From positions 14,127,501 through 14,191,500 of the forward strand of contig JASXTE010000007.1 of NCBI GenBank assembly GCA_030280995.1: DNA of 64,000 nucleotides, given 5' to 3'. Each line of letters opens with the position of its first letter. Position 1 is the stretch's first letter. Made by a program: the position numbers and the translations under genes. The DNA comes from Hemileia vastatrix (lineage: Eukaryota; Basidiomycota; Pucciniomycetes; Pucciniales; Zaghouaniaceae). The notes beneath the pieces are model-generated. The model had not been told where the DNA came from. It saw nothing but the letters and a program-made list of their open reading frames with translations, and searched no databases. This document shows positions 19,560 through 47,559 of the stretch, piece after piece.

Positions 19560-19926
19560 CCTCCAGCAAGAGGTTAAACTGCAAGTATCTCCTTCTATTT
19601 TTGACCTCCAGCAAGAGGTTAAACTGCAATTATCTCCTTCTATTATGGACCTCCAGCAAGAGGGTAAACTGCAAAAATCTTATCAAAATCCGATTAAAAA
19701 TCTTAGTATAATTAAAACACAAAAAAATAATTTATGTGAAAAGGTTATTCCGGACCTCCAGCAAGAGGTTAAACTGCAATTATCTCCTTCTATTTTGGAC
19801 CTCCAGCAAGAGGGTAAACTGCAAAAATCACATCAAAACCCAATTAAAAATCTCAGTATAATTAAAACACAAAAAAAAAATTTTTGTGAAAATTCAATTC
19901 CGGTCCTCCAGAAAGAGGTTAAACTG
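19560..19926 (+). repeat. Six copies of the 22-nt hairpin motif inside pol
   Basis: Copies start at 19560, 19605, 19650, 19755, 19800 and 19905. Each has stem CCTC, a 6-nt loop (CAGCAA), stem GAGG, one base, then TAAACTG. In frame they encode DLQQEVKLQ or DLQQEGKLQ, spaced by 45 or 105 nt. Two further copies lie in pol at 21906 and 21962 (LPHEVKLAG, LHQEDKLEN). Confidence 0.9.
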
Positions 19927-22900
19927 CCAACTTTCTTTACGGGTGATTTACTGTTGGATAAGGGAAGCAAAGATGTTGGAAAATCTGTTTATAAATTAGA
20001 AGAGGGAAAGGAGAAAAGGGTAAAATTTAAAAATGAAATAAAATATTTTTCTAATTTTTCTTATTCCGATTCTGGCGATGAAGAAGATTCATTTGATGAA
20101 ATTTTTAATGGCGATACAAAAGTAAATGTTTTACCTCAAGTTTATTTAGATGTGGACGCAGCCAAATATAAGAAAGTAGCAAATAAAGTTCGACCTATTA
20201 ATGAACCGCTACCTGCCAAATTAAATCCACCCTTGAGAAGACCAAGGTTATCAAGAGATCCTTATGAAATTCCCTTGGTAAAGAATCCGCCTGAATTTTC
20301 TGAGACGTCAAGAATCACTTTTGAGAGACTGGGTGTTGTTAATTTTGGACCTGATGGTTGGTTGTCTGGAGAAGAGAAGAAGTTGTTGTTGGATGTGATG
20401 GTCAAGCAAGAGAAGGCCATTGCTTTTGTAGAACAGGAGAGGGGTGTGTTGAAGCATTCCTATGGGGAGCCTTACAAGATTCCTGTGGTATGTCATGAAC
20501 CGTGGCAGCAGAAACCAATTCCTATTCCGGCTGCATTAAAAGAAGCCTATATTGAAGTTGTCAGAGAACGGATATGCACTGGACTGTATGAGCAATCAAC
20601 ATCAAGTTATTCTAGTCCGGTATTTTGTATCAAGAAACCGAATGGCAAGCTTAGAGTTGTTCATGATCTTAGGGAATTAAATAGGGTTACAATAAAGGAT
20701 GCTGGGATACCGCCTAGTGCTGAGGAGTTTGTCGAAGCATTTTCAGGGAGAGTGTGTTATGGTTTGGGAGATATTATGGGTGGATATGATGAGAGAGAGT
20801 TACATCCGGACTCAAGGCCTCTCACTACATTCGATACACCACTTGGACGTTTACAGTTAACAAGATTACCTCAAGGAGCAACAAATTCGGTTGCAGTTTA
20901 TCAAGCTCAGATGGCTTGGATCCTTCAAGACAAAATTCCACAATATGCTGGAATCTTTATAGATGATGGAGGAATTAAGGGACCAACAACCGACTATGAT
21001 AACCAGGTGTTGGAAGAGAATCCCGGGATACGCAAATTCATTTGGGAGTTTTCAATTACATTAGAAAGAATCTTGTTTCGAATTGAAGAGGCTGGTTTAA
21101 CTATTTCAGGTTCAAAATTTTCATGTTGTGTGCCAGCCTTAGAAATATTAGGCCATGTGGTATGTAGAGAGGGTAGGATTATGTCCAAGAAGAAAGTTAA
21201 CAAAATTCAGTCATGGCCAAGACCCAAGAATACGACCGAAGTTAGAGGGTTTTTAGGTGTTTGTGTATATGTTAGAATGTTTATAAAGGACTTTTCTTCA
21301 TTGGCAGCTCCATTGAGACGGTTAACGAGAAAGGATGCAGACTGGGAGTGGGATGAAGAGTGCGAGAAGGCGTTTGTGAAGTTAAAAGAGGTTGTAGGGA
21401 AGGATTTAGTCCTGCACAAGTTGGATTATGGAAAAGATGCTGGTAGAATTTATTTAGCAGTTGATTCAAGTCAGGTTGCAGCTGGGGCGGTTTTGTCTCA
21501 GATGGATAAAGCTGGTTACATCAGGCCAGTTAGGTATGAATCTGTAGTATTTACTGATGTCAAATCAAGATATTCTCAACCAAAATTGGAATTATGTGGT
21601 GTGGCAAAAATACTGAAGAAACTTCAGCATATTTTGTGGGGGCAACATTTTGAGTTGCAAGTGGATGCAAAATTGTTAATCCAGATGATTAATTCCCCAA
21701 GTTTACCAAATGCACCCATGACGAGATGGGTAGCTTTTATTCAACATTTTTCGTTCGATTTAGTTCACAAGCCTGGCAAGACTTTTACTATGCCAGATGG
21801 TTTATCAAGGAGACCACCCACTGAAGAAGATTCAGACTCAGAAGAGTTTGATGAAGATATACCTATTATCAAAGCCAGCACTAAAGGATCTGAAGACTTT
21901 CCATACCTCCCCCATGAGGTTAAACTGGCAGGACTATTGTGTTTAGATTATGGTGATTATGACCTCCACCAAGAGGACAAACTGGAAAATAGTTTTTATG
22001 TTAATAAAAGTTTTGGAAAAGGTTTAGAAAAATTTGGTAGAAAGGAGGTAGAAGAAGATGTGGTGTATGTAGAGGAAGATGAATTGGTAGTGTGGGATAG
22101 TAGTAAGTTAAGGAATGGTGTATATGTTGGAGAATTAGAGAATTTAAATAAAAAGGTGGATAAAGAGAAAGAGGTATTTTCAAATACAGTTTACGAAGGA
22201 TCCAAAGGTTCAGAAGAAAAACGTCGACATAGCTCGATTAAAGATTTATTTAGGGGTCAACGATTATTGGCTCATTCATGTGCAGGTGATATTGGTGATA
22301 GAGAAGTCCCTATTGATGTTATATTAATCGATTTTCAAGATGAAGTCTGGGGTCAGACTGGTTTTTATTTTTTGTTAGTCAAATATTTGTTGACTTTAGA
22401 GAGGCCAGAAGATTGTGAAGACGATGAATGGGTGGCTATCAAGAGGAAGTCAACTACGTTTTACCTATCTGGTCGACATTTAATGAGGAGGAGGTATCCA
22501 AATCCTCAAGTAGTTATAACTCAACAGAAGGGGCAAGAATTAGTTTTGAAATCACTGCATGAAGATCTCGGGCATAGAGGCGTTGGAGAAACGTTTAGAA
22601 GAATTTCTGATTTATTTTGGTGGCCTGGCCTGAAGATGGCTGTTAAACAGTGGGTTCAGTCATGCTAAGAATGTCAAAGACGAAGTTATTTAAGGCCAAA
22701 AGAACCTGGAGGTGCGACCGGTGAATATACGCTCTTTGGGAGAGTTAGTTTTGATGCCGTTCATATAAAAGAGGGACGGTATAAATATTTAATTGTGGCC
22801 AGAGATGATTTATCTGGTTGGGTAGAGGCAGCGCCTCTTATTAATTTAACTGCCAAAAATGTGGCAGAATTTTTGTTGAATAATTGGGTATATAGGTATG

Positions 22901-23617
22901 GGGTGATGAAGTTGGTAATGGCAGATGGAGGTCCTGAATTTGGGACAGAGTTTAAAGAGGCCGTATTGAAAGTTGGATCAAAGGTTAGGGTAGCAACCCC
23001 ATATTATCCTGAAGCTGAAGGCATGGTTGAAAGAGGGCATCAAGTTATCAAGGATGCTTTAGTTAAAATGTGTGGGACAAGTGCCGAAAAGTGGAGGCAC
23101 TATTTACCTTTAGTTTTATTTGCTGATCGAATCACTGCCAAAAGGACGACCGGATTTTCACCTTATGAACTTTTTTTTGGACAGAAAGCAGTTTTACCGG
23201 TTGATTTAGAAGCTGAATCATATCTTGGAGTTGACTGGGACACGGTCAAAACTACTGAAGAATTATTGTGTGCAAGAATGATGCAGCTAGAAAAGAAAGA
23301 AGAATATTTAGAAAAGGCATATTCGCGGATGATGAAGATCCAAAATCAATCAGTCAGATATTGGAATGAGCGGTTGGCACATCGATTAAGGAAACCTTTG
23401 AACCCAGGTGATATGGTCCTGGTGTATAATAGAAGTCTAGAGAGTCAATGGGGAAAGATGTTTGCAGATAGGTGGAATGGACCGTATAAAATAAAGGAGC
23501 AAGTTTCCGGAGGTTCATATGTGTTAGAAGAGTTGGATGGAGTAGTATTGAAGAAGAGGGTAGCGGCCGATCAAGTGAAACGGTTCTATCTTGAGGCACC
23601 AGGAGTGCCGAAGTCTA

Positions 23618-23870
23618 CCTCCGCAATGAGGATAAACTATGATATCGACGAAATTTTATGGATTTGTCCGCAATGAGGATAAACTATGATTTTTATAAAA
23701 ATCTTATCGACCTCCGCAATGAGGATAAACTATGACATTTATCAAATTTTATTGTCCTCCGCAATGAGGATAAACTATAATATCAACGAAAATTTTATTA
23801 CCCTCCGCAAGGAGGATAAACTATAATACCAACAAAATTTTATGATGACCTCCGCAATGAGGATAAACTA
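23618..23870 (+). repeat. Tandem array of the 22-nt hairpin motif after pol B
   Basis: Six copies begin at about 23618, 23666, 23711, 23756, 23802 and 23849. They read CCTC-CGCAAT-GAGG-A-TAAACTA (first stem base pair disrupted in the second copy, loop variant CGCAAG in the fifth) and are separated by 20-26 nt of AT-rich spacer. They straddle and follow the pol stop at 23676. Confidence 0.92.
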
Positions 23871-24082
23871 TCTTCTTTTATCAAAATACTTTACTATCGT
23901 TATACTGCATATGGGCAACGAAACTGTGATGAAACTTTACGAAATTCAAGAAAACCTTCTTTGAAATTTTCAAAATTTAAAATTCTTAAAATATGGGTGA
24001 AGATAGTGTTAGAAAATTTTTAAAAATTTATTGGAAGAAGTGTTCACAGGGGAACCTTCTTAATTTAATATTGGCAAGTGTG

Positions 24083-24123
24083 GGGGTAATTGATGGGCTG
24101 GCTGCTCTATGCACAATTACCCC
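24083..24123 (+). repeat. Conserved 10-bp-stem hairpin, B copy
   Basis: GGGGTAATTG pairs with CAATTACCCC around the loop ATGGGCTGGCTGC-TCTATGCA. Three C copies (43529, 43788, 46617) keep the loop while the stem changes in a paired way. It is preceded by GGCAAGTGTGG in B and two of the C copies. Confidence 0.82.
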
Positions 24124-24340
24124 ATAATTTTCGTTTCCAAAATTTTCCCTGTTTCTAGTTGAATCCTGGCTTTGTCTTTTAATTATATGAAGTCCACTAA
24201 GACTATAAACTGGAACGAATCAAGAGACACCGCTCTCAATGCCGGATTCAAGATTCTTTTATTTTGTTTTTGATTTTTTTTATGTTAGATTGTGATTTCT
24301 TTTCTTTAATATATATTATGAATTATTGTAAAGGTGATGC

Positions 24341-24392
24341 TCACTGGTGGTCTCTAATCATTTTTATAAATTGGAGGGAGCCCACCCAGTGA
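24341..24392 (+). repeat. TCACTGG/CCAGTGA hairpin, B copy
   Basis: TCACTGGTGG and CCACCCAGTGA are complementary around a loop ending TTGGAGGGAGC. The same arms and loop end recur in C at 43971-44022. Confidence 0.72.
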
Positions 24393-24466
24393 TCATCATT
24401 ATAAAAATTATCTTCTAAAAACTTTCATTTATTTTCTTTTCTTTTCAATTTCTCAAAATTGTGTAA

Positions 24467-24492
24467 CCACATCAAGTTGCACTTGGATGTGG
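24467..24492 (+). repeat. CCACATC/GATGTGG hairpin, B copy
   Basis: CCACATC-AAG and CTT-G-GATGTGG form a stem with one bulged G. It is followed about 24 nt later by GGCTCATCAAATGGCTGGGG. C has two copies, one with the paired change AAG/CTT to AGG/CCT. Confidence 0.75.
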
Positions 24493-26165
24493 GTATGATG
24501 TTGAGGGTACGGCTCATCAAATGGCTGGGGGGCATCTTTTAAAATTTTTATTTTAAAATTTTTTTTTATTACTTTTTTTTATCTTTCTTTTCACATTTGT
24601 TTATCTTTCTTTAAAAATTGAATTTTAACTATTATTTCAAAACTATCTTTTTAAAAATCTTTTATTTTAAATCAAAAAAAAAAATAAAAAAAATAAAAAT
24701 AATATATTATTAATGGTAAAATAAAAATAAAAATAAAAAATAAAAAAAAAATAAATAAAAAATAAATAAATAATAAAATAACTAAAAATAAAAAAAAATA
24801 AAAATAAAACAAAATAAAATAAAAAATAAAATAAAATAAAAAAATAAATAAAAAAATAAATAAATAAAAGGTATTTTAGTTTTAGGTAGTTTAGATGTTT
24901 ATATTTTTATTTTTCAAACATTATTCAAGAAAGCTACATACCAGGAAGAACACCATCAAGGGTTGTTATCTTTTGAAGAATCAAAATTAGAAAATTTAGA
25001 AGGACCTTGATTGATTTCCTGGGATTCGAATCTTATTTCACGGTCACAATAGTGTTGAAGCCAGTTGGCTATTTTAAAAAGGTCTCTTAACAGTTGTTCT
25101 CTCATCCAAGATTCTGATCTATCTTCGATCTATCAGAGGGCGGGTATTGTTTGAAATAAGCGATAAGGTTATTAAAATTAGCAAATTTTATACAAATTTT
25201 GGAATGTTTGGTCCACCATGACTTTAAACTGGTAGTTCATTCATTGTTTAGTCAACTATTACTTTAAACTGGAAAATTAATATCTGCAGGATAATTCAAC
25301 ATTCATTGGTCCACTATGGCCTTATACTGGATTACTTGTCGATAAAATGTTTGGTCCACTATGACATTAAACTAGATTATCAAATTTATTCAGTCTTTGG
25401 TCAAGCCTAGGCCTTATTTAGGAATTTATCAAGTTATTTATGCACCTAAACGATCTTTGGTCCACCAAGACCATAAACTGGCAATCGATTATATGTTTGG
25501 TCCACCAAGACTTTAAACTGGAATGTCAATCTTGTTTGGATAACTCAATTCAATATTTTAATTTATCACTGTCCACTAAGACTCTAAACTGGTTATTCAA
25601 TTATTTCTGGAATTGGGTGCTGATAAGCTTTAGGAGGTTAAAATTTTAGATGGTGATGATGCTAAGGAAAGCATAATGGTTAATTAGGTGAAATTTGTGG
25701 CGCTTTAACATGGTCTAAAGTTAATATTATTATTGGAAGCCTGAAAAAGTATTTTATGGGTTTGCTGTATAGCAAAGTTTGAAAATTGTGATGAAGGAAT
25801 CAGAAGTTAGGATGGTAGTTGGATTTTAGGGAATGATTTTTAGTGCCTCAGTGTTAGGCCATTTTTGGTGTGAAGCTTGGAGGACCTTATGGCGAGATTG
25901 GAATCATAGAATTCGGCTCAGTGGGGGGCCCTATGAGGTTGGAATCATGAGTATTCGGCTCATAGGAAGATCCACTCTCTCAATGCTGTGACAAGAAGGA
26001 AGACTGGTATATGGGAGTCTGAAGGGATTCAAACCTTGCTCTCAGTAGTGGAATCATCACAAGATTTATTATTATTTTATGTTAAGCCAGAGAAGAAAGA
26101 AAACAACATTTATGTTGAAAGTTAAAGAAGACCAAGCAAAAACAAAATTTTATCAAGTTATACTG

Positions 26166-26856
26166 TTAGAAAAGATAATTTCTTTGAAATTGTTCAACAT
26201 CATTATCAAAGCTTTGCATTAAAATTCTTCTTTTCATGAGGTCTTCATGGTTATTAGCTGGAGTTTCTTGAGAATAGGCCAGCATTTTTCGTTTCAACTC
26301 ATTAGTAAAGTCAAGAAAAAGATAGCGATGAAAATTTGGATAATGATTGATATAGTCCGTCTTCACTCTACCAACATCATCAGTGTTGGTTATTTCGACA
26401 GCTAGAAGTTCAAATATGTTATTAAGTCATAGGTTTAGTCAATTTTTATTAAAAGTTTTTTTAGTAAGATAATAGGGTCTTACATTTAGAGCCAGGAAAC
26501 ATAGTCTCAGCAAAGTTGGTTGGGGGCACTGGCGTTATAGGATTAGGATCTTGTGAAGGAAAAATTAGGCCGGGATCCGCTGATGAAGATTGAACTTTTG
26601 AAGCTGTTTTTGATCTTATTTGTTTTAAGAAGACAGGAATTTTTGATCATTTTTTAGAAGTTGAGGGATCAGGGAGAGCTGCTGGTCCTAAATATACGTT
26701 TGTTTTAGAAGGAACTATTGGCCAGTTACATTTGACTTTTTTCACACGGCATAAGTCCCAAGCTGTCCTGCCAGGAAGATTAGGGTTGGAAATTAAACAA
26801 GGTACCTGGTATCGAGCACAGAGTTCACATGGAGCGACAAGTTCTTTGAAAGACAT
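26166..26856 (-). pseudogene. Antisense zinc-cluster gene of element B
   Basis: A spliced gene on the strand opposite to gag-pol, starting 125 nt inside the 3' LTR. Exon 1 is 26856-26484 and exon 2 is 26401-26166, with an 82-nt intron (GTAAGA...TTCTAG); together 609 nt, frame kept. Exon 1 encodes CELCARYQVPC and LCRVKKVKC, a Zn2Cys6-like cluster in which the fourth Cys is Trp (AWDLC). A Ser/Pro-rich linker follows. Exon 2 gives a helical end (FTNELKRKMLAYSQETPANN, DLMKRRILMQSF). One in-frame TGA (26647-26649, codon 70) interrupts it. C carries two better copies. Zn2Cys6 proteins are fungal DNA-binding regulators; a role in regulating the element is an inference. Confidence 0.72.
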
Positions 26857-26970
26857 ATTGATGAAGATGAATTTTATAGTTGATTAAAGAAGATGGTGGT
26901 TGAAGGTTAAAGATGAATATTGTGTTTGACCACTTATGCAAAGTTTTAAGAATGGCAACATTCTCAATTG

Positions 26971-26980
26971 GAGGGAGGAT
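26971..26980 (+). other. Polypurine tract of element B
   Basis: GGAGGGAGGA directly before the 3' LTR, preceded by ACATTCTCAATT. The same sequence precedes the 3' LTR of C. It primes plus-strand DNA synthesis. Confidence 0.88.
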
Positions 26981-28101
26981 GTGGTAGCCTAAAGTTTAGT
27001 ATGGCACCTAAGTACCTAAATGGAGTTATTACGGCGTGCAAGATTGGCGTTATTATTTTATAAAAGGGTTTCATTAAATTTATTTGAGTCTTAAATATAA
27101 AGAAATTTGGTTAAAAACAAATGCCTACACGAAATAAATTTATTTTACGGAGAAAACTTATTTTGCGGTCTGAAAAGTTTATAAGTATCAAGTCAAATCA
27201 CTCAAGAACCTTGGGAAATTTTTCCAGAATTTTTACTATTTTTCTTATATTTTTAAAAGAATTTTAAAGATTTATAGAAATATTTACGTTTTCGGAAATT
27301 ACTTAACTTTGATGAATTTTCACGGGGTAATTAGAGCTGCGCAGACTACGAAAATTAGTTTGGAATATAAAGGGGAAATAGCTCTATCATGTGTAATTTT
27401 TCTAGATTTTTTATTATAGTTTTTAAGGTTCTAATTGAGTCCGGAACTCCGGACGGACTCCACTTTGACTCCGCTTTGACTCCGTACGGACTCCGTACGG
27501 GCTCCGGATTGACTCTGGGAGAGCTCTGGAGGGGAAAATTTAGGCACATGACTAGGAATACTTAAGCGCCTCTCAAACTCGAAATTGAGGGGGGGGGGAT
27601 ACATCATACAGCTTAATCATTAACCACCACGGTCTTATTATTTATTACTCAACAAATTAAATAAATTTGTAATACCCTTATAACTTTAATTTTATATATA
27701 ACATTTTAGAAATACTACTGAACAATTTAAATTACACTTCATACAGGGTATCTTTAGAAAGGTCTTCATTTCTGGGACTTGATTATTGCTGTCTCATAAA
27801 AACTCAAATTATAATAAAAACATAAAAGTCAATCTTTACAGATCTTTCACTGGTACACCTTAATTGTTGTTATCAGTATTTCTTTTCTCAACAGCCACAT
27901 TCTTTAAATCTCAATAAGTGTTAAATATTTTAGTGTTTCATTATTTTTTTATCAATCAGATCCAAGTAGACTGGTTAGCTTAGTGATTTAGAATTCCCAT
28001 TTTGTTATTTTTATTGGAAGGACGGGGTTTTCAGCTAAATCCACATATCTCCTCCGGATTCTGCTTACAGCAAGGTGACTGTAAGAGTTTACCTTACCAT
28101 A
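26981..28101 (+). repeat. 3' LTR of element B
   Basis: Same length and almost the same sequence as 15419-16539, with scattered substitutions and compensating one-base indels. Followed by the target duplication GCGC. Confidence 0.93.
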
Positions 28102-29999: not shown

Positions 30000-30092
30000 T
30001 TATATATCTATATACACATAGTTCTAGAATATTCTACTAGTTTCTCAATGCTTCTTAAACTTACTACTAACTTCCCTAAACACTCCCTAAAA

Positions 30093-30367: not shown

Positions 30368-30640
30368 AGGGGGTGTCAGTTCTGGCAAATCCGCACTTAT
30401 CTAAGTGCGGATTTCCAAAAAACACTAGCCCCAATACTGGGGGATTTCAAAAGTGAAAAAAGTTGCTTATTTCACTCAAATCCGCACTTTCTCAACCAAA
30501 AGTGCTGATTTCACCATCAAGTCCCATTTCACTGATTTGTCAGCATCATCCCATTCATACGCAGCACTCTGCAGCATAACACTTCATAACTCAAAACATC
30601 GTACATCATTTACATCTTCATATCATATCATATAAGAGTT

Positions 30641-35601: not shown

Positions 35602-36696
35602 TGTGGTCTTCCAACATTGGCAGGGGCCTTTGTTGTGTGATTTGGCGCTGTTTGTGCATGTCTTAATTGACATCTGTTAAGGAATTTGGTATTTTTCTGG
35701 TTTTATTCCGTGGATATTGGGTCTGCGGGTATGTGGGTACTATCATTGGATAGCCCTGGTTTTTCTCTATATTTTATGTCTTGAAGACATTTTTCATATT
35801 CTGAGTTTTAAGGGGTCATTTCCTCATTTTTCATTTATAAAAGATTGCTGTTTAATTTTGTTTTTCGTGTTTTACGGGCTAACCTTAAGGCTTAGGGTTA
35901 AGTGCTTAGTACCATTTGATAGAGCTAATTTTTCTCTATATTTCATGTCTCAATGTTGTTATAGTGAAATTCCGTGTTTTAAAGGTTTTAGTAGTTGTAG
36001 CTTATTTTTCCAAGTAGATTAGTGGTTTTTATTGGTTTTCTGGCTTCAGGGAGGCCGGGCCGCTTCAGGCGGCATCTCCGACGTCGGGCGGCCCGCCCGC
36101 CTCTGTTTTAGGAGGTTGGGGAGCGCTCCAGGAGGGTTTTTTATGCAATCTGGCAGGTACAGGCGCCAGATTGGTGGGTGCGCATGGGCTCTTAGTTAGT
36201 GGTCTGTGTGTACATAGTGAATAAGACGGTTTGGGGCAACCTTAATCATCATACAACCATCCGGAGGTGATCTCATTGTTCCTCACTCAGTTTTCACTGT
36301 TTTCTGGCCACAATTGGCTGTGTTTGTTGCAAGTGAGTTCTTCATTTAACTTAACTTTAGCAACTGTTTTCTCTGTTATAGTCTTGCAAGCTATAGCAAG
36401 TATTATTGCTGTCTCTGGTGTGGATTTGCAGCCTACATCAAGTATCTTTGCTGTCTCTGGTGTGGACTTTGTTCTACATTTCAGTTCTTTGGTCTGGTAG
36501 TCTATCTGGTGACTACTTTCTTGGCTCATCAAGCAGTCAAGTGTGTTTAAAAAGGGGTCTTTAGCAAAACAGGAACCAACTTACTTTAGCAAGTAAATCT
36601 CACTCTATTTTTCTAAAGGGACAGGGGATTTTCTCTCTGGTTTTTCTCCAACTCCCTTGGTCAAGGCCTATAGCTAGTACTATAGGATTGTCTACA
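35602..36696 (+). repeat. 5' LTR of element C
   Basis: TGTGGTCTTCC...GTCTACA. It includes a GC-rich palindromic block (about 36045-36130, GCCGCTTCAGGCGGC and GGGCGGCCCGCCCGCC) and a TTTAAAAAGGGG box near 36546. Frames in it on both strands repeat in all three LTR copies and have no domain. Confidence 0.94.
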
Positions 36697-36700
36697 TTTC

Positions 36701-36717
36701 TGGCGCCCAACGTGGGG
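36701..36717 (+). other. Primer-binding site of element C
   Basis: TGGCGCCCAACGTGGGG, four bases after the LTR; it resembles the lysine-tRNA primer site of several retroviruses (from memory). Confidence 0.8.
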
Positions 36718-36787
36718 TAGAACTTGCCAGTTCCTTGGAATCTCTGTTTTCTTTGGTTGGCTCTTTTTGGTGTTTTGGTCAGGAGGA

Positions 36788-39169
36788 ATGGCTTCTGGTT
36801 CTGCTATTCCTGTGGTGACTGTCAGTGGGGGGAATGGTCCTCCTTCTGTGATGTTTAGGGAGTGTGTGAGGATTAAAACTTGGGATGGTACCAAGTTTAA
36901 TGGGGAGGATGTCAAGTGGTTTCTAGAGAAGTATGAAACTGCTGCTGGAGTGGATGGTGCTTCCTACCTGGACATGGTGAAGCAGATTATCTTCTTCATT
37001 GGTGATAGGTCAGTGGAGAAGGAGATTGTGGCCATGTCTGGCTACAAGAAGAGGGATTAAAAATTGTTGTGTAGGGAAATGGTGGATCGATGGGGTGTCA
37101 GGTTCACTATGGTGGACTTGAACAAGGTTGTAAGTGAATGGCAATCTTATGGTGGTGTTGGTAACTTACATAGTTACAGGAAGTTTCTGCTACAGTTTAA
37201 TCCTGTGGTGGAATACTTGGTGGAAGTGGAGGAGCTGGCACATGAAAATGCTGCCAAAGATGTTTTTTGGTCTGCCCTGGCTAGGGATGTCAGGATGGAT
37301 GTGTTGAAGGAGTTGTCAAGAAAGGAATTGATGAAAACTCTTTCTAATGGGGATCAGAAGTTGCCTGCCTTGGATAAGGTGAAGGAGGCTGTTGAGGCCC
37401 ATTTGAAGTTATTGGCTGTGGACACCTATCAGGAGGGGTGTGCCAAGTATGTCAGCAAAGTCAGTGAGGCTTTGGCTGAAGAGGAAGTTAGGGAGAAGAA
37501 GGAGGAGAAAAATTTGGTGCAGGTTCCCAAACAGGAGAGGGACCCAATGGCGGAGCAGCTGGCTGATCTGACAAAACAGCTGCACATTTTTGTTCAGGAG
37601 GCCAAGAAGGTTAATAAGGCACCTTCTCAGCCAAGAGAGTTTGAAAGAAGGGCTGGTAGGAGTGATCCTTGGGTTTGCTCTTATTGTAGTAGGAGGGGGC
37701 ACAGGTCCAATGATTGTTGGGCACTGAACAGAGATGTGTCTGAAGGAAAAGTGGAGTTTGATGGCAGGGTTTTTAAGTTCCCTGACGGTTCTTTTGTGAA
37801 GCCCAGTGAGGGGCAGGCTCCTGTTGATTTGGTCAGGAGAAGAGGTGGTCTCAATCAAAGGAGGCCAAGGTTTGAGGAGATTCCTGATCAGGGGAAGTCT
37901 TCTGTTAAGGTAGATGAGGACGTCAAGGGAAAGGGGAAGGAGGTCAATAAGGTCTCTTTTTCTACTTCTTTTTGTGGTTTGGAGTTGTATTCTTGTGGTG
38001 GACAGTTAAGTGGAGAATGCTTGGCTGGTGTTTATGATGTGGAAGCAGGGAAGGTGGGAAGGCCTAAGAGAAGTTCTCAGGCCCAACCAAAGCCAAATGC
38101 TTCAAAGGGTGATCCTAAGCTGAGTGCAGCTAGGAAAAGGTACAGCAAAGAGGAGCTGTACAAGATGCAGAAAGGTATGGCTGACATGGGCCCCCCTAGT
38201 TTTGGTGCATTGGACCTGAATGGTGAGCCATTGCCAATGGAGGTGGATTCTGATTCTGCGGAGGATGTCCCTTTGGCTTCATTGCCAAAGCCTGTTGGAG
38301 TCAGAGGTTCTGGTGAAGGATCTGGTTTGGTTCCTGTTAATGGTAAATCTGTTGGTGGTTCTGGTCCTCAAGAAGCTTCTAGGACTAAGGTGGTGAAGCA
38401 AAGAGCTCACTTTGAGAGGCCAGTAGTGTCTGGTCAAGTTAATGTTATGGACTCTGTCCTGGAAAGGATGAACCAGGGTCAGGTTTCCCTATCTTATGGG
38501 GAATTGTATGCTATCAGTCCAGGGTTGGCTGATAGGCAGAAGAAGTTGTTGACCAGGAGAAGGGTTTCTTCTGGTGAGGTAGAATACATTTGTGATTCTG
38601 CTGAAAAGTTTGGTGAGGGGTTGGAAACTCATTTTTCTGCTCCTCTGGGATATGTCAATGTCACTCTGAATGGCAGGGAGGCAAGGGAATTGGTGGATTC
38701 AGGTTCTCAGATAAACCTGATTTCTTTGTTTGAGGCAACTCATATGGGCCTCCCCATCAAAACTGGTATTGGTGGGAATTTGAGAGTGATCGGTGGCCAT
38801 GTCACTGAATTGGTCGGAACTTCAGAGTTTGTGAAGTTAGATGTTGGAGGAGCCTCAGGGAAGGTTCATTTTTACATTGCTAAAGGTAATGTAAAAGCAA
38901 TTTTGGGCGGGCCATTCTTGATGGATTTTCAGGTAAGAATTGGTTATCAATTTGATTTGGGAATCAGTTTGGAGTTGACTGGTGAAGACAAAAGGAGGCT
39001 TCACATGAGGTTATCATCCCCTGGAGAGGATAGTTGGAAGACTTGGCCTGGTTTATCTTCAATGTGCCAGTGCATGGACTGCTGCAGGAGAAGGAAGGAA
39101 GTGGGTGCTGCCTCTGGTTTTTTGGAGTGCGGCTCAGGCTCTATTGAGAGTCTGTCTTTTTTAGAGTAA
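36788..39169 (+). pseudogene. Gypsy C gag-protease
   Basis: Starts at ATG 36788 (MASGSAIPVVTVSGG). Capsid region: IKTWDGTKFNGEDVKWFLEK, then TAA at 37058-37060 where B has Trp-Val, then DRWGVRFTMVDLNKVVSEW and LPALDKVKEAVEAHLKLLAVD. A charged linker precedes the CCHC knuckle CSYCSRRGHRSNDC. Protease: VTLNGREARELVDSGSQINL with intact DSG, IGGHVTELVGTSEF, ILGGPFLMDFQVRIGYQ, then a Cys-rich end CQCMDCCRRRK. The frame ends at TAA 39167-39169, two codons after a slippery heptamer. Other than the single gag stop it is open. It parallels B throughout and serves as the reference for B's breaks. Confidence 0.93.
39157..39163 (+). promoter_or_regulatory. Candidate -1 ribosomal frameshift site, element C
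   Basis: TCT TTT TTA GAG TAA in gag-protease frame contains T TTT TTA, a classic X XXY YYZ heptamer, one codon before the stop. Shifting by -1 leads into the pol frame (RVRRADHPS...). Confidence 0.68.
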
Positions 39170-42100
39170 GAAGGGCTGATCACCCTAGTGCTACAACCTC
39201 TCCCCGAGATGAGGAAATCCCAGGTTGTAGTAGGTCAGCTCCCTTGGAGATATACTAAGTGGATTTTCAACTTTCTCTTTTTAATGTTTCTCTTCTCTGC
39301 AAGTATTAATCAAGTTTTTTATCAAGTCTCTGTTCTCTCTCAAGATTTTTAATTATTTTTAATTCAAGTTTAAAGAAGAAGATTGGTTATATATCTTTAT
39401 TGAAAGATATGCGGAAAAGTTTTGGGGCGGTGAGATTGGGGTCTAAAAGTAAGTCCTCCCAATTGTGCACCACTAGGGTTTCTTCTACACCTTTCAAAAA
39501 CATTACCTGGGCCACACCTGTGAGCATTGGGAAAACCCCTGGTTATTTTTGTAGGTCAGAAGAAAACTCAAGAAAAGAAGATAAAAATTTCAAGATAATT
39601 CATGAAAATCAAGAAAAAAATCTGAAGATAATGAATAAAGAAGACGCAAAATATTTTTGTGAAGATCGTCAAGATCTATTTTTGGGCCTCCAGCATGAGT
39701 TTAAACTGCAGAAAATTTTGAAGCATGATGATTGTCAAGATCAATTTTTGGACCTCCAGCATGAGGATAAACTGCACAATTTTAGAAGATGTGATTCAGA
39801 AGACGAATCAAGATTTGAAGATTTGGAAGTTGGAAGTGAGGATGATGATGTGGAATTGCAGAAAAGTTTTGGAGTGGTGAGATTGGGGTCTAAAAGTAAG
39901 TCCTCCCAATTGTGCACCGCTAGGGTTTCTTCTACACCTGTCAAAAACATTACCTTGGCCACACATGTGAGCAATGGGGAAACCCTTGGTTTTTGTTCCA
40001 GGTCTGGTGGTGAAGATTTCCTGAAGATCCCTCAAGTTGAAGGGGGAGCGGCAAAGTATAAGAAGGTAGCGCAGAAGATTAGGCCTGTCAATGAGCCTAT
40101 GCCTGTGGGTTTGAATCCACCTTTGAAGAGACCTCCTTTGTCAAGAGATCCGTACTGTACTACTTTGGTGAAGAATCCTCCAGAATTTGTAGAGACGGCT
40201 AGGGTGACCGTGGAAAGATTGAAAGTTGTTAATTTTGGTCCTGATGGGTGGTTGTCTGAGGAAGAAAAGGAGTTGTTGTTGCACGTTATTGTGCTAAGGG
40301 AAAAAGCGGTGGCATTTGTTGAGGAGGAAAGGGGTGTTCTGAAGCACTCTTATGGGGAACCTTACTTGATTCCTGTTGTTTGTCATGAACCTTGGCAAAT
40401 CAAACCTATTCTGATTCCAGCCGCTATCAGAGAGGATTTTGTGGAGATTATTAGGGAAAGAGTCAGGACTGGGTTATATGAACAATCAACATCCAGTTAC
40501 TCAAGTCCGGTGTTCTGTGTAAAGAAGCAGAATGGAAAGTTGAGGGTGGTTCATGATCTTAGAGCCTTGAATAGAGTCACTATCAAGGACGCTGGTATGC
40601 CGCCAAGTGCAGAGGATTTTGTTGAAGCTTTTGCTGGAAGAGTGTGTTATGGTTTGGGTGATATTATGGGTGGTTATGATGAGAGGGAACTACATACGGA
40701 TTCAATGCCTCTCACAACTTTTGAGACTCCTTTGGGAAGATTTAAGCTCACTAAGTTGCCTCAAGGAGCAACTAATTCGGTGGCAGTTTATCAAGCACAG
40801 ATGGCTTGGATTTTGCAGGATGAGGTTCCTACTCATGCTGGTATTTTTATTGATGATGGTGGAATTAAAGGACCATCCACTGATTATGGTAATGAGGTGT
40901 TATCGGAGAACCCTGGAATAAGGAGGTTTGTGTGGGAATATGCAATAACTCTAGAGAGAGTGTTGTTCAGGATTGAAGAGGCTGGTTTGACCATTTCAGG
41001 GTCAAAATTCTGTTGTTGTGTTCCTGCTTTGGAAATTCTGGGTCATGTGGTGTGTAAAGAGGGAAGGATTATGGCGAAGAAGAAGATTAATAAAATTCAG
41101 GCATGGACAAGGCCTAAAAATACTACTGAAGTTAGAGGATTTTTGGGTGTATGTGTATATGTCAGGATTTTCATTAAGGATTTTTCTTTGTTGGCTTCAC
41201 CTTTAAGAAGGTTGACCAGAAAAGATGCAGATTGGGAATGGACTGAAGAGTGTGAAGAGGCTTTTCAGAAGCTGAAAAAGGTTGTTGGTGAAGATATAAT
41301 TCTTCACAAGTTGGATTATGGTGTTGGTGCTGGAAAGATTTATCTGGCAGTGGACTCAAGTTATATTGCTGCTGGTGCTGTGTTGTCTCAGGAGGATAAG
41401 ACTGGGAGGGTCAGGCCAGTAAGGTATGAGTCTGTGGTGTTTAATGAGGTGGAATCTAGGTATTCTCAACCTAAGTTGGAATTGTGTGGCGTAGCTAAAA
41501 TTTTGAAGAAGCTACAGATGGTTTTGTGGGGACAGCATTTTGAGCTGCAGGTGGATGCAAAATCTTTGGTTCAGATGATCAATACACCTAGTCTTCCAAA
41601 TGCTCCAATGACTAGGTGGGTGGCATTTATTCAACATTTTTCTTTTGACCTGGTACACAAACCAGGTAAAACTTTTACTATGCCTGATGGATTATCAAGG
41701 AGGCCACCTACAGATGAGGATTCTGATTCTGAAGAGTTTGACAAAGATGTTCCAGTGATTTGGGCCAGCACAAAGGGTGCTGAGGGTTTTTCTTTCCTCC
41801 CCCATGAGGCTAAACTGGATGATTGTTCTGACCTCCCCCAAGAGGTTAAACTGGCTGGATCTGATCTTGATTCTGGTGATAAGGATGTTTTTGTTGATGA
41901 AGATGGAGTTGTTGTTTGGGACAGCTCAAAATTGGAAAAGGGTGTTTTTGTTAGTGAACTGGATTCTCACAAGGTTCAGTGGAAAGAGAAGGACGTGCCA
42001 AAATTTAAGGATTGGTGTCCTGGTTGGGCTGCTCAATTGGCTCATGTTCACACTGGTGATTTTGATGACAGAGTTGTACCCTTGGATGTTGTTTTGTTGG

Positions 42101-43389
42101 ATTTTGAAGATGAGACCTGGGGTCAATCTGGGTTTTATTTTATTTTGGTGGAATATCTGTTGACCTTGGAGAGGCCAGATAGTTGTGATGATGATACTTG
42201 GTTGGCAATCAAGAAGAAGAGTCCTGGATTTTATGTGTCAGGAAGGCGCTTGATGAGAAGGAGACATCCTAATCCTCAAGTGGTGGTGACTCAGAAGAAG
42301 GGTCAAGAATTGGTTTTGAAGTCTTTGCATGAAGATCTTGGTCATAGAGGCTTTGGGGAGACTTATAGAAGAGTAGCGGAAAGATTTTGGTGGCCGGGTA
42401 TGAAGTTGGCTGTGCAGGGTTGGGTTCAATCTTGTGAAGAATGTCAAAGAAGAAGTCACTTGAAACCTAAAGAGATGGGCTGTGCTACTGGTGAATCAAC
42501 TGTTTTTGGAAGGGTCAGTCTGGATGCTGTCCATATTAAAGAGGGCAGGTATAAATAATTGATTGTTGCTAGGGATGATTTGTCTGGTTGGGTTAAGGCA
42601 GTGCCTCTGGTTAATTTGACTGCCAAGAATGTGGCAGAGTTTTTGAAGAAGGAGTGGATTTATAGGTATGGGTTGATGAAGTTGGTGACTGTTGATGGCG
42701 GGCCAGAGTTTGGTACTGAATTTAAAGAAGCTGTGGCTAGTGTGGGTTCTAGGGTTAGAGTGGCTACGCCGTATTATCCTGAAGCTGAAGGAATGGTTGA
42801 AAGAGGCCATCAAGTTATCAAGAATTCTTTGGTGAAGATGTGTGGAGATAGTGCCAAAAAGTGGAGGCATTATTTACCCTTGGTTTTATTTGCTGATAGG
42901 GTCACTGTGAAGAGGACAACTGGCTATTCTCCTTATGAGTTAATGTTTGGTCAGAAAGCCGTTCTACCAGTGGACTTGGAAGCTGTCTCTTATCTTGGAA
43001 TTGATTGGGATGACGTGCAAACAACAGAAGATTTGCTCTGTGCCAGGATGCAACAGTTGGAATGTAGAGAGGAATGTCAAGAGAAGGCATACTCTAGAAT
43101 GATGAAGATTATGAATCAATCAGTCAGATACTGGGACAAGAAGTTAGCTCATAGACTCAGGAATCCCTTAAAACCTGGTTGTTTGGTTTTGGTGTATAAT
43201 AGAAGTTTGGAGAGTCAGTGGGGGAAAATGTTTGCTGACAGATGGAATGGACCTTACAGAGTCAGATCTCAGGTGTCTGGAGGTTCTTATGTTTTGGAAG
43301 AGTTGGATGGTGCAGTCTTGAAAAAGAGGGTGGCTGCAGACCAAGTGAAGAGGTTTTATCCCAGAGGCACTAGGCATGAAGAAGATTGA
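39170..43389 (+). pseudogene. Gypsy C pol: RT, RNase H, integrase
   Basis: The -1 frame after protease meets TAA near 39257 and more shortly after. It is open from about 39400 to 42558, then again to 43389. A duplicated linker (SFGAVRLGSKSKSSQL and SFGVVRLGSKSKSSQL) and two DLQHE-type hairpin repeats precede RT. RT: LRVVHDLRALNRVTIKDAG, DIMGGYDEREL, LPQGATNSVAVYQ and active site GIFIDDGGIKG. RNase H: IYLAVDSSYIAAGAVLSQ, LELCGVAKIL and LQVDAKSL. Integrase: LHEDLGHRG...SCEECQRRS zinc site, VSLDAVHIK (Asp), TAA at 42556-42558 in place of Tyr, TVDGGPEFGTEF (Asp) and EAEGMVERGHQ (Glu). A GPY/F end (DRWNGPYRVRSQ) follows. No chromodomain is seen. Confidence 0.93.
39687..39774 (+). repeat. Two 22-nt hairpin motifs before RT in C
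   Basis: Copies at 39687 (CCTC-CAGCAT-GAGT) and 39753 (CCTC-CAGCAT-GAGG), each with tail TAAACTG, encode LQHEFKLQ and LQHEDKLH. Two more lie at 41796 and 41832 within pol (LPHEAKLDD, LPQEVKLAG). Confidence 0.88.
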
Positions 43390-43528
43390 CTCCGCAATGA
43401 GGATAAACTACGGACCATTCTTTAATTTTGGTTTTTTTTTTGTGGTGATGCTATGCATCTGTTTGTTGGAAACTTTTGTTAGAGGGTACCCATGGGTGGG
43501 GCTTCTAGATTTGATCTTGGCAAGTGTA

Positions 43529-43569
43529 GGGGTGACTGATGGGCTGGCTGCTCTATCAACAGTTACCCC
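43529..43569 (+). repeat. Conserved 10-bp-stem hairpin, C copy 1
   Basis: GGGGTGACTG pairs with CAGTTACCCC (one G-T wobble). The loop ATGGGCTGGCTGCTCTATCAA matches that in B. Confidence 0.82.
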
Positions 43570-43787
43570 AGATTGTCTGTTTCCAACCCTTTCTCTTAAT
43601 TTGGTTGAACCCTAGTATTGGTTTCTTTTTACAGGTTTTAGTCCTCTATGACTTTAAACTGGATATTGCTTTGGTTTTCAAGTGCCGGACTCTTCACTCT
43701 TATTGGTTTGGATTTTTTGAGTTGAATGTTGTGTTTTTGTTAGAATGTACCCAGGGGGGGCTTCTAGATATTATTTTGGCAAGTGTG

Positions 43788-43829
43788 GGGGTAACTGATG
43801 AGCTGGCTGCTCTGTAGAACAGTTACCCC
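43788..43829 (+). repeat. Conserved 10-bp-stem hairpin, C copy 2
   Basis: GGGGTAACTG pairs perfectly with CAGTTACCCC around ATGAGCTGGCTGCTC. Against B (ATTG/CAAT) the pair A-T/T-A to C-G is a compensatory change. Confidence 0.84.
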
Positions 43830-43970
43830 AGAATGTCTGTTTCAAGTCTTTTGTTTTTCCTAGTTGAATTCTAGTTCTGTTGTTTATTATTCAGGTTTTG
43901 AGTCCGCTATGACTTTAAAATGGTTTGGGACTGGCTTCTTTATCTATGGTTCTTTCATATTGGTGGCGGA

Positions 43971-44022
43971 TCACTGGTGGTCTCCCATCATTTTTACTTG
44001 TTGGAGGGAGCCCACCCAGTGA
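43971..44022 (+). repeat. TCACTGG/CCAGTGA hairpin, C copy
   Basis: Same arms as in B at 24341 and same loop end TTGGAGGGAGC; between the arms the sequences diverge. Confidence 0.72.
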
Positions 44023-44201
44023 TCATTTCTATGGACCAGACTTTCCCTTATTGGATCATCTATGGAGCTGGACCTTCTTTGATTTTGAAGTTATGTTTTT
44101 GCTAGATAGTAGTTTTAGATTATTTTCTTTTTTCTCTTTTTTTCTTTTAATTTTTTTATGGGGGTTGTTTAAAATTATAAAATCAAAAATATAGGGTGTT
44201 A

Positions 44202-44421
44202 CCACATCAGGGTCACCTGGATGTGGGCAAGCATTGGTGGGGAAAGGCTCATCAATTGGCCGGGCAAGGCTATTTTATTTTTATTTATTATTTATTTCAT
44301 GTGTTTCTGTGTTTCATTATTTTTTATTATTTTCTGAATTTCCAAATTTTGGATTTTGTTTTCTGATTAGTCATTTAAAAGATTTAATTGTGTATCCACA
44401 TCAAGGTGCACTTGGATGTGG
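44202..44421 (+). repeat. Two CCACATC/GATGTGG hairpins in C
   Basis: 44202-44226 has CCACATC-AGG and CCT-G-GATGTGG; 44396-44421 has CCACATC-AAG and CTT-G-GATGTGG. Each is followed by GCTCATCAATTGGC. The AGG/CCT versus AAG/CTT difference keeps pairing. Confidence 0.76.
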
Positions 44422-44632
44422 GTAAGGTATCAGGGGTTCAGCTCATCAATTGGCTGGGGGATACCATTTGTATTATTTTTTATATTTTATTTTATTTCAT
44501 TTATGTTATTTCATTTTCATTTTATTTATTAATTTTCTTATTTTAGTATATCAGTAGACCGTAAAAAAAAAAAAAAATTCTGAAATTATTTTTTTTACTT
44601 GTTTTATATTATTTATATGTTTCTAATCTTTT

Positions 44633-46215
44633 TCAGGAGCTCATTGTCTGGATGATGAAGCTTCTGGAGGCTGGTCCGGATTGTGATGACGTTTTTGTTT
44701 TTTTTTTGGGATTGTGGGAAGCACTGTGTTCTTTGAAGTGCATCCTGCTGGAGAGATTATAGGGATTGTAATGATCAGGGATTGGATTAGAGGGAAGTTC
44801 AGAGGAGGAAGAAGAAGAAGAGGCAGGAATGGAGTGCTGGAGGGTGTGTTTAATGATCCTAGACATTTTCCAGTGGTCGTCCAGTAGGCGCTTTCTCAGG
44901 TATTTTTCAAAGTCATTCAAGGGTCCATGAAGGGCAAAGGCTTTTAGCATATTGGAACACATGGTGCTTAGGTGTTTCTTCATGTCTCCATAATCCAGGG
45001 TCAAAGAAGTTTCAAGAGTTTGGCCAACTCCAATAATAGATTCAGGAGGAGGGGTGCCAACTAGACAAGAAGAATTGGATCAGTAATTATTTTTGTTGAA
45101 GAAATGGAATAATTAATTTGGTACTTACAGATTGGAAGCTCATCAAATCTGTAAGCAGCTGGGATTTGGATCTCTGACGATTTTGTTAAGGTCATAGTGG
45201 GTGGATCAACTAGGGAAAGATATGGATTCTCATGGTCTTCCTCTGAAGGATCCTGAGAAGGTGAACTGGGATGATGAGGTTCCTGGGGCCTAGTTGGAGC
45301 AGTGAGATTGTGGTTGTTGTTGTTTTTGTTATTTCTGTTGGATTCAGCTGGAGGAGGTGCTGGTGATGGAGTACCAGGGTTGTTAAAGGATGGAGCAGGA
45401 GAGGGGGATTTGGAAGCAGACTGCTCTTTTCTGGATGGAGAATTTGAAGAGATGGAACTGTCAGAAGAGTAGTTGGCTGACAGAGGAGAGGTGTATTTTC
45501 TTTGTCTTAGTTGGGGATGAAGTTGTTGTTGTGGAGCAGTGTGTGGTGTTCTGGTTTCTTCTTGGGGTTCTCTGGCAGTTCTCTTAGAAATCTGGGAAAT
45601 TTTGGTGTTTTTGGATTTTGGAAGGGTGGATTGTATTGCTCTAGGAGCAGTAGGAGGTAGTTGGTTTGAGTTGTTTTTGTTATCTGGATGAATTTAGCTA
45701 TTTTCTGGCCGTTTTTGGAGGTTTTGGCCCTGATTTTCGCTGTTTGGTGAGGCAGGCAGGCCGCCCGACGTCAGCCGGGCCGCCTGGACGCGGTCTAGAA
45801 GCCTAGGGGTTGATTTTGAAGCTTTTGGAGCTAATTTAGCAGTGATAAAAGCAGTTTCTTGAGAAGCTAAGGCTGGTCTTTTTGGAAGAGTGCGGGAAGC
45901 TGAGCTTCTGGATCTTCTGGAAGGAGCTGAAGATAGAGAGGAAGAGGATGGACCAAGTTCTGGAGACCTGGTAGGGGATCTGGAGATGTACTTGTGAGAA
46001 GGAGAAGGCGGAGGAATAGGATAGTGGGCATCTCTTTCACATTTCTTTTTTTTGGAATAGCAGGAGTCACAAGCCCTGTTGTAGAATTTGGCTTCTGGAT
46101 TTGGAAGAGTGAATGTGCAAGGTCTGCACATGTGTATGCACTGTTTGCAGGCATAGTCCCTTGGATCAGTGAAGCAAGAAAGAGTAGAGGAGTCAACAGC
46201 AGGGGATCCAGACAT
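44633..46215 (-). pseudogene. Antisense zinc-cluster gene 2 of element C
   Basis: Opposite strand to gag-pol. Exon 1 is 46215-45129 and exon 2 is 45060-44633, with a 68-nt intron (GTAAGT...GTCTAG); 1515 nt in frame, about 504 residues. The N-terminus holds a Zn2Cys6 pattern: CKQCIHMCRPC, 15 residues, then CDSCYSKKKKC (C-x2-C-x6-C-x15-C-x2-C-x6-C) with the usual basic stretch. A very long Ser/Pro/Gln-rich linker follows. The C-terminus is helical (DMKKHLSTMCSNMLKAFALH, FEKYLRKRLLDDHWKMSRII), with a Ser run and a Lys-rich tail. One TAA (45694-45696) at codon 174 is the only break in an otherwise open 505-codon frame. Likely a nuclear DNA-binding protein; function in the element is unknown. Confidence 0.75.
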
Positions 46216-46870
46216 GATTTGTGGTGTGAAAGGTGATGAAAAGGATAAGAGAAGATTTTGTCAGTGATGAATAGAAGATGAAGTGAAGGTGGACGCTCTG
46301 TGGGTCTGGCTGTGTGTGTGTATTGCATTAAATTGGCTGGGTCAGATTCATGCAAGATTCTGTCAGTCCTCTATGACTCTAAACTGGAAATTTTATCAGT
46401 CCATCAAGACTCTAAACTGAAAAAGCTATAGTATCAAGGTAGTCCGTCAAGACTTTAAACTGAACACTGTGTTAGTCCCCCAAGACTTTAAACTGAGGGT
46501 TGTAAGTCCCCCAAGACTATAAACTGAGGGAAAAGTTTTTGTTGTTGGAGTTGGTTTGAAAGATTGGTGGAGGGTATCCACAGGGGGAGCCTCCGAATTT
46601 AGCAAGGGCAAGTTTGGGGGTAATTGATGGGCTGGCAGCTCTATTCACAATTACCCCAGAATGTTAGTTTTTTCTCTGTGTCTTAATGTGGTTGATCTCT
46701 GGTTCTGGGTTTATGATTTAGGTTTTTGAGTCCCCCAAGACTTTAAACTGAGGGTTTTTGAGTCCCCCAAGACTATAAAATGAGGATGGTCCCCCAAGAC
46801 TTAAAACTGAGGTTTGTTTGTGGTTACATCCTATAGAGGGTGTGATCAATTTTTCTTTTCTGAATCAAAC
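46216..46870. repeat. Array of 22-nt hairpin motifs between the antisense genes
   Basis: Eight or more copies: 46364, 46398, 46441, 46474, 46505, 46729, 46761 and 46788, with stems AGTC/GACT (last GGTC/GACT), loops CCCCAA, CATCAA, CGTCAA or CTCTAT, and tail NTAAACTG. A 10-bp-stem hairpin lies among them at 46617-46657 (GGGGTAATTG/CAATTACCCC). The region would be the upstream sequence of the antisense gene at 46215. Confidence 0.88.
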
Positions 46871-47511: not shown

Positions 47512-47549
47512 GGTGGTTGGATAAAGAAAGAATGCGGACATTCTCAATT

Positions 47550-47559
47550 GGAGGGAGGA
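47550..47559 (+). other. Polypurine tract of element C
   Basis: GGAGGGAGGA before the 3' LTR, with the same upstream ACATTCTCAATT as in B. Confidence 0.88.

What the first reader, a model, noticed from the sequence alone, without database searches (positions are those of the whole stretch)
19560..46809. A 22-nt hairpin motif with covarying stem, repeated about 30-40 times in elements B and C
Pattern: 4-nt stem, 6-nt loop (CNNNAW), complementary 4-nt stem, one base, TAAACTG. Stems occur as CCTC/GAGG, AGTC/GACT, GGTC/GACC and GGTC/GGCC, so pairing is kept while bases change. It is found in pol (in frame), right after pol in tandem, through the 3' region, and between the antisense genes. Such covariation with a fixed single-stranded tail suggests a selected RNA structure, for example a binding site for gag or a host RNA-binding protein, or a processing signal.
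Basis: seen in the sequence. Interest (0 to 1): 0.88.

Follow-up and report, generated by a model that had tools for sequence, protein, structure and literature searches.

The report
Palindromic motif arrays in fungal retrotransposons
Two related fungal jumping genes carry dozens of copies of one short palindromic DNA word, and each also carries, written backwards, an intact or decayed gene for a protein that resembles zinc-cluster DNA-binding proteins, so the word is more likely the docking site of the element's own regulator than an RNA hairpin.

Summary
A 22-nt unit (NSTCC NNN AW GASN N TAAACTR) occurs 37 times, 22 in LTR element B and 15 in C, all on the sense strand; none in LTRs, gag or the rest of the window. 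The weakest copy scores 23.4 bits, the next match 11.2. The arms pair in 95% of cells, G.U included, but only the outer two pairs really change, in two classes: CTC/GAG in and just after pol, GTC/GAC in the 3' region. So independent changes are few and cannot tell an RNA hairpin from a palindromic DNA site. The nucleotide sequence itself is conserved: 18-21 of 22 against 4-12 of 20 in flanks, and 21 of 21 shared codons inside pol. Native flanks disfavour the hairpin. C has two antisense ORFs, B a decayed one, between pol and 3' LTR, with a zinc-cluster-like domain whose halves are in the reverse of Gal4's order. Best reading (0.55): a DNA site array for the element's own antisense protein, working like VANC/VANDAL21. 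Binding is inferred. The host genome search did not complete, so spread beyond the window is untested.

The parts
15419..28101 (+). LTR retrotransposon B (Ty3/Gypsy pol; LTRs about 15419-16539 and 26980-28101, 97% identical; 4-bp target duplication GCGC, ends read by eye)
35602..48654 (+). LTR retrotransposon C (LTRs 35602-36696 and 47560-48654, 99% identical; 4-bp target duplication ACGG, ends read by eye)
19560..19926 (+). 6 in-frame motif copies, class CCTC/GAGG, pol N-terminal extension of B (peptide LQQEVKL and variants)
21906..21984 (+). 2 in-frame motif copies, class CCTC/GAGG, RNaseH-integrase linker of B
23618..23870 (+). tandem array of 6 copies (about 46-bp period), class CCTC/GAGG with tail TAAACTA (one copy, 23665, has a broken stem), at the end of B pol
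24191..24212 (+). motif copy AGTC/GACT just after the palindromic block D2 in B
25210..25591 (+). cluster of 7 copies, class GTC/GAC, 3' region of B
39687..39774 (+). 2 in-frame motif copies, pol N-terminal extension of C
41796..41853 (+). 2 in-frame motif copies, RNaseH-integrase linker of C
43389..43410 (+). single copy (ACTC/GAGG, TAAACTA) at the end of C pol, 21/22 identical to B 23618
43640..43922 (+). 2 copies AGTC/GACT (43640, 43901), each just after a D2 block, in C
46365..46809 (+). cluster of 8 copies, class GTC/GAC, in the gap between antisense genes AS1 and AS2 of C
46874..47541 (-). AS1 of C: antisense gene from next to the 3' LTR; zinc-cluster-like exon, GT-AG intron 47180-47131 (50 nt) that fits the frame change, second exon
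45697..46215 (-). AS2 of C: second antisense ORF with zinc-cluster-like Cys pattern (a further ORF follows downstream to 45064; not joined here)
26169..26856 (-). AS1 of B: homologous antisense gene in pieces; one cluster Cys replaced, one internal stop, intron 26483-26402 (82 nt) fits the frame change
24041..24181 (+). block D2 in B: 140 bp with long palindrome GGGGTAAYTG...CARTTACCCC; in C at 43487-43627, 43746-43886, 46575-46715

Best explanation
The 22-bp unit is a double-stranded DNA recognition site, polar and built on an inverted repeat (half-sites CTC or GTC, six bases apart, plus a TAAACTG tail). It is recognised as a dimer by the zinc-cluster-like protein that the same element encodes antisense between pol and the 3' LTR. 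Many dispersed sites let the protein coat pol and the 3' part of its own element and regulate it, most likely by activation or by countering silencing, while leaving host genes alone. SHOWN here: the sites, their class geography, nucleotide-level conservation inside and outside pol, and the antisense genes with a zinc-cluster-like signature. INFERRED: expression of the antisense gene, zinc and DNA binding, dimerisation, and the regulatory outcome.
For: Only two six-frame matches to CX2CX6C-X5-25-CX2CX6-8C exist in the 64 kb, both in the antisense region of C beside the densest cluster; mean 0 per window in 40 codon shuffles. Profile of three antisense domains against PDB sequences: 8 of 9 matches up to E 10 are fungal zinc-cluster regulators, best GAL4 and LEU3 (E 0.34, 0.84), whose two halves align in swapped order. 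Trimmed domains pass the Pfam Zn_clus cut-off of 21 in 2 of 3 (21.3, 13.4, 22.6 bits). Foldseek with the AS1 model: 19 of 21 hits are Zn2Cys6 regulators such as GAL4, PPR1, HAP1, Pho7 (a 20th, a CBF3 chain, holds one by recall; the other is an HNH nuclease). AS2 model: both of 2 hits are Put3. AS1 is homologous between B and C in both parts (E 8e-8 and 1e-9 in a small search), with GT-AG introns that fit the frames. Motif 18-21 of 22 identical at six B/C pairs, ungapped flanks 4-12 of 20. Shared codons 21 of 21 identical against 312 of 603 background, P 9e-8; linker pairs alone 2e-4. Inverted triplets six apart match Zn2Cys6 dimer sites such as Ppr1's (recalled). Dense same-orientation arrays are what VANC21 binds (PMC5735166, passages).
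Confidence: 0.55

Rival explanations
1. RNA hairpin in the sense genomic RNA: the stem-loop with single-stranded TAAACTG tail is a binding site for gag, a host RNA-binding protein or a processing factor.
For: On 30 distinct rows the arms form standard pairs in 95% of 120 cells, against 73.9% in shuffles (0 of 500 as high); covariation score 0.49 against 0.15. All 37 copies on the sense strand. Of 11 departing pairs in the 10 imperfect copies 5 are G.U (by eye), more than the roughly 1 in 6 of random single changes (my estimate, not tested). Another, longer palindrome (D2) sits just upstream of four copies. In isolation the 22-mers do fold (36 of 37 below 0 kcal/mol).
Against: Weak stems; stem probability lower in native than in shuffled flanks, higher in 13 of 37. 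Inner pairs nearly fixed; two position-bound classes, so few independent compensatory changes. 6 of 11 departing pairs are mismatches. No copy in the 5' untranslated region or gag, where packaging signals usually lie (recalled).
Confidence: 0.22
2. Selfish short tandem repeat: the unit spreads within the element by slippage and gene conversion and has no function; similarity is homogenisation.
For: Several copies are in tandem arrays with periods of about 31-46 bp; a 150-bp block in pol is duplicated.
Against: Sharp 22-bp edges; conserved at corresponding B/C sites where ungapped flanks differ; confined to pol and the 3' region; arm complementarity kept in both classes.
Confidence: 0.13
3. Selection is on the peptide L-Q/P/H-Q/H/K-E-x-K-L in pol, and the copies outside are by-products.
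For: 12 copies in frame, coding LxxExKL.
Against: 25 of 37 copies lie at the end of or after pol; 21 of 21 shared codons are identical; in 77 related proteins an LxxExKL-like scan gave only strings of other context, none like the motif peptide.
Confidence: 0.03
4. The site is bound by a host DNA-binding protein (for example a host Zn2Cys6 factor), and the antisense genes are unrelated to it.
For: Nothing shown here ties the antisense protein to the motif beyond position and protein type.
Against: Motif absent from the rest of the window; host sites would rather be expected in the LTR promoter.
Confidence: 0.07

Closest known systems
VANC21 / VANDAL21 (Hiun) anti-silencing system, Arabidopsis (PMC5735166, passages read)
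   Same: Transposon with a short DNA motif (YAGTATTAY) in dense same-orientation arrays; arrays evolve by tandem duplication; element-encoded protein; motif types differ between subfamilies.
   Different: VANDAL21 is a DNA transposon (recalled); VANC is not a zinc-cluster protein (recalled); its motifs lie mainly in non-coding regions, while here 12 of 37 lie inside pol; motif here is a palindrome with a tail; no binding or demethylation shown here.
Retand LTR retrotransposons of plants (PMC11963269, passages read)
   Different: Retand antisense protein has a TRP28 domain; none was found here in the antisense ORFs scanned with Pfam. Here the repeat unit is a defined 22-bp palindrome that also sits in pol.
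Boty-like retrotransposons of Botrytis with antisense gene brtn (reference and methods passages only)
   Same: Fungal LTR retrotransposon with an antisense extra gene.
   Different: Sequence of brtn not compared; nothing on motif arrays in the passages seen.
Fungal Zn2Cys6 proteins (Gal4, Ppr1, Put3, Leu3, Hap1, Pho7)
   Same: Six Cys in two CX2CX6C halves, one half with a basic stretch; dimer sites are usually paired CGG triplets and the Pho7 site has an A/T-rich extension (PMC5559640, passages read).
   Different: Halves in reverse order; putative half-sites CTC/GTC instead of CGG; encoded antisense by a retrotransposon.

Membership tests
Zn2Cys6 binuclear cluster (Pfam Zn_clus) | six Cys as CX2CX6C-linker-CX2CX6-8C | tested here: met
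   AS1 and AS2 of C, the only two matches in six frames with a linker of 5-25; the B copy lacks one Cys
Zn2Cys6 binuclear cluster (Pfam Zn_clus) | basic CDxCRxxKxKC half first, PCxxC half second | tested here: not met
   query 39-54 aligns to GAL4 8-23 and query 17-32 to GAL4 25-41, i.e. swapped; AS1 residues 24-40 match profile 18-35
Zn2Cys6 binuclear cluster (Pfam Zn_clus) | profile score above curated cut-off | tested here: inconclusive
   trimmed domains 21.3 (AS1 C), 13.4 (AS2 C) and 22.6 (AS1 B) bits against 21; full AS1 ORF 12.5, AS2 ORF no match
Zn2Cys6 binuclear cluster (Pfam Zn_clus) | fold of the zinc cluster | tested here: inconclusive
Ty3/Gypsy LTR retrotransposon | LTRs, PR, RT, RNaseH, integrase in Gypsy order | tested here: met
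   Pfam PR (C gag-PR ORF), RT, RNaseH and integrase zinc domain; LTR pairs; the integrase core ORFs were not scanned
VANC anti-silencing system | element-encoded protein binds the repeated motif | not testable with these tools
VANC anti-silencing system | dense same-orientation motif arrays confined to the element | tested here: met
   within the window only; whole genome not reached
Retand lineage | antisense TRP28 domain ORF | tested here: not met
   no TRP28 match among the antisense ORFs scanned: three, six pieces
Conserved RNA structure element | known Rfam family | tested here: inconclusive
   19 matches with E up to 1 over 15419-48654, none at its gathering score; two overlap motif clusters (46715-46805 -, E 0.096; 25213-25301 +, E 0.87)
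Conserved RNA structure element | covariation beyond phylogeny | tested here: inconclusive
   shuffles exceeded on three of five measures, but pair 2-13 is 18 C-G, 18 G-C, 1 other, split by position, so events are few

The most novel reading that the evidence does not exclude
A rust-fungus retrotransposon lineage carries its own sequence-specific regulator: a fast-evolving, circularly permuted zinc-cluster protein encoded antisense. It has sown the protein's binding site through pol and its 3' region, even into the polymerase reading frame at the cost of codon freedom, with two site classes for pol and for the 3' region. This would be a retrotransposon counterpart, evolved independently in fungi, of the VANC anti-silencing system.
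Probability: 0.35. Interest if true: 0.82.

Novelty: new variant of a known kind. Interest (0 to 1): 0.6.

Why it matters
[quoted passage not shown] Here an antisense gene that resembles DNA-binding proteins comes with a sharply defined, abundant candidate target, which makes the question testable. It would also be a case of a regulatory site forced into a coding frame, and of a zinc cluster with its halves swapped. The stem rust fungus methylates young transposons (PMC8444563, outline and abstract), so in rusts a counter-silencing device would have something to act on.

Tried and rejected
RNA hairpin as first choice: demoted after the flank test and the class geography, not excluded. Known RNA family: nothing at gathering score (most sub-threshold matches are miRNA models on a low-complexity inverted repeat at 32.6 kb). 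Peptide-level selection: rejected on codon identity. Helical phasing of the spacings (27-106 bp): looked at by eye, no clear pattern, not tested. Public DNA: one scan of viral contigs with a CTC/GAG-class pattern gave 12 contigs with one match each and no arrays, taken as chance; the expected number was not computed. Relatives of pol: 77 proteins with E up to 1e-20 among 7981 scored candidates, rust and other fungi among the named ones; none shows the motif peptide; their DNA could not be read, so motif absence there is not shown at DNA level. Homologues of the antisense proteins: none in two searches (E up to 1 and 10), though the length limit of 0.55-1.75 times the query may have hidden longer spliced proteins. 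AS2 in B: BLAST gave no B match for AS2's zinc piece beyond the B AS1 zinc piece (E 0.012); an eye-seen similarity of a downstream piece was dropped. One of the nine PDB sequence matches (E 2.3) is an unrelated Cys-rich chain and was not followed. Literature: ten searches; no listed title or abstract start was about this motif or antisense zinc-cluster genes in rust retrotransposons, which only says that these term sets in this library did not list one; several lists were capped.

Full report
WHAT IS THERE. The window holds two LTR retrotransposons of one Ty3/Gypsy lineage, B (15419-28101, LTRs 97% identical) and C (35602-48654, LTRs 99%), each with a 4-bp target duplication read by eye. Their pol genes are about 76-77% identical in DNA over the aligned stretches. 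The two best protein relatives are unnamed (75% over half the query); the best named ones are from the rust Puccinia striiformis (73% over 52%), and one hit is filed under a bacterial metagenome bin. The species of the window is not known to me.

THE MOTIF. A stem-blind scan found 47 + strand sites with at most one mismatch, 37 of them in B/C. A covariance model gives the same 37 at 23.4 bits or more and nothing else above 11.2. Counts: B 22, C 15; all on the + strand; 12 in pol (in frame, one frame), 25 at or after the pol end, none in LTRs or gag. Information content drops outside the 22 positions to 0.6 bits or less; the largest flanking values are 0.58 at the base two before the unit and 0.41 four bases further up, a T/G-rich bias.

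ARMS. Over all 37, pair 2-13 is C-G in 18, G-C in 18 and broken in 1. On the 30 distinct rows, pair 1-14 is A-U 10, C-G 10, G-U 3, G-C 2, U-G 1, other 4; pairs 3-12 and 4-11 hardly vary. The C-G class occupies pol and its end in both elements; the G-C class occupies the 3' region in both (the one broken copy, 23665, lies within the pol-end array of B). The classes therefore look older than the B/C split, and the number of independent compensatory changes is small. In one search three of five measures exceed all 500 shuffles; 'pairs with a change on both sides' (2) and 'further pair types' (6; 139 of 500 as high) do not. That control does not allow for relatedness.

SELECTION ON SEQUENCE. At six corresponding B/C pairs (three of them one B copy against three duplicates in C) the motif is 18-21 of 22 identical while 20-bp flanks are 4-12 of 20. 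The flank comparison is ungapped and so understates flank similarity; with gaps the D2 block upstream of some copies aligns. In pol, the aligned motif copies share 21 amino acids (8 Leu, 4 Glu, 4 Lys, 3 Gln, 1 Pro, 1 His) and all 21 codons are identical; outside the motif, from B position 20140 on, 312 of 603 identical residues share the codon (Leu 19 of 59). P is 9e-8, or 2e-4 for the linker pairs alone, taking codons as independent. One search listed 26 shared residues in B motif copies; I left out five whose C partner does not lie in a motif copy (19567, 19618, 19660, 19918, 19924), of which one has the same codon and four differ, so without that choice the count is 22 of 26. Tandem duplication makes copies non-independent, so the smaller claim is the safer one.

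RNA OR DNA. The isolated hairpin is weak. In 102-nt native context its mean stem probability is 0.369 against 0.464 with shuffled flanks (20 shuffles per copy); it is higher than the control in 13 of 37 and above 0.5 in 16 of 37. This does not look like a locally selected RNA fold, though a protein could capture a weak hairpin. Of 11 departing pairs 5 are G.U (by eye), a mild point for RNA. A four-base inverted repeat spaced by six bases is equally the form of a dimer DNA site. One-strand orientation fits RNA or a polar DNA site; VANC21 sites are also arrayed in one orientation (PMC5735166, passages).

ANTISENSE GENES. Between pol and the 3' LTR, C has two antisense ORFs with CX2CX6C halves, and B has a decayed homologue of the first. 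In six frames of the whole window the full six-Cys pattern occurs only in those two ORFs, and not in 40 codon-shuffled windows. A three-sequence profile matches GAL4 in both halves, in swapped order, at E 0.34. Structure models are poor (pLDDT 56.5 and 52.0), yet 19 of 21 Foldseek hits of the first (20 with the CBF3 chain, by recall) and both hits of the second are Zn2Cys6 proteins, all with E above 1. GT-AG introns at 47180-47131 (C) and 26483-26402 (B) fit the frame change between the two homologous parts of AS1 (frame fit by my arithmetic; the C donor GTAATG is not a strong consensus). The densest cluster of C (46365-46809, 8 copies) lies in the gap between AS1 and AS2.

MECHANISM. I take the motif as the DNA site of the antisense protein, which binds along its own element and regulates it, probably against silencing. 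Shown: sites, conservation, gene resemblance, position. Inferred: expression, binding, outcome. Rivals are RNA hairpin (0.22), selfish repeat (0.13), host factor site (0.07) and peptide (0.03).

NOVELTY. Arrays plus an element-encoded binder are known in VANDAL21, and antisense ORFs plus repeats in Retand. The combination here (a zinc-cluster-like protein with swapped halves, a palindromic site with a tail, sites inside pol) is a new variant if binding holds. It is not filed as a Zn2Cys6 family member, because the order of the halves was tested and not met.

LIMITS. Two elements only. The genome search did not answer in twelve tries (last). No DNA of relatives was available, and no expression or methylation data.

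Noticed in passing
24041-24181, 43487-43627, 43746-43886, 46575-46715: A 140-bp block (D2) with a 10-bp plus 4-bp palindrome GGGGTAAYTG...CARTTACCCC, one pair of it changed on both sides (U-A to C-G), followed in all four cases by a motif copy 10-15 bp on. Could be a second site or an RNA hairpin of the element.
   Followed up: partly
33159-34202: ORF with a Tet-like 2OG-Fe(II) oxygenase domain (PF20515, E 1e-29) between the two elements; the stretch 33604-34725, which takes in its 3' part, has an inverted 80% copy at 6381-7505.
   Followed up: no
34876-35601: Inverted LTR fragment (94%) directly abutting the 5' LTR of element C.
   Followed up: no
57560-63589 (-): Uninterrupted 2009-aa gag-pol ORF with chromodomain; a relative in several ORFs, 76% identical over 11581-14480, lies at about 9400-14480 on the + strand.
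   Followed up: no
16001-24000 and 36001-48000: Strong G over C excess on the sense strand inside B and C (skew 0.18 to 0.37 in 2-kb windows).
   Followed up: no
32535-32831: C-rich and G-rich minisatellites facing each other as an inverted repeat; draw many sub-threshold miRNA matches.
   Followed up: no
19282-19930: Pol N-terminal extension of B enlarged by in-frame LQQEVKL repeats, including a duplicated 150-bp block.
   Followed up: partly
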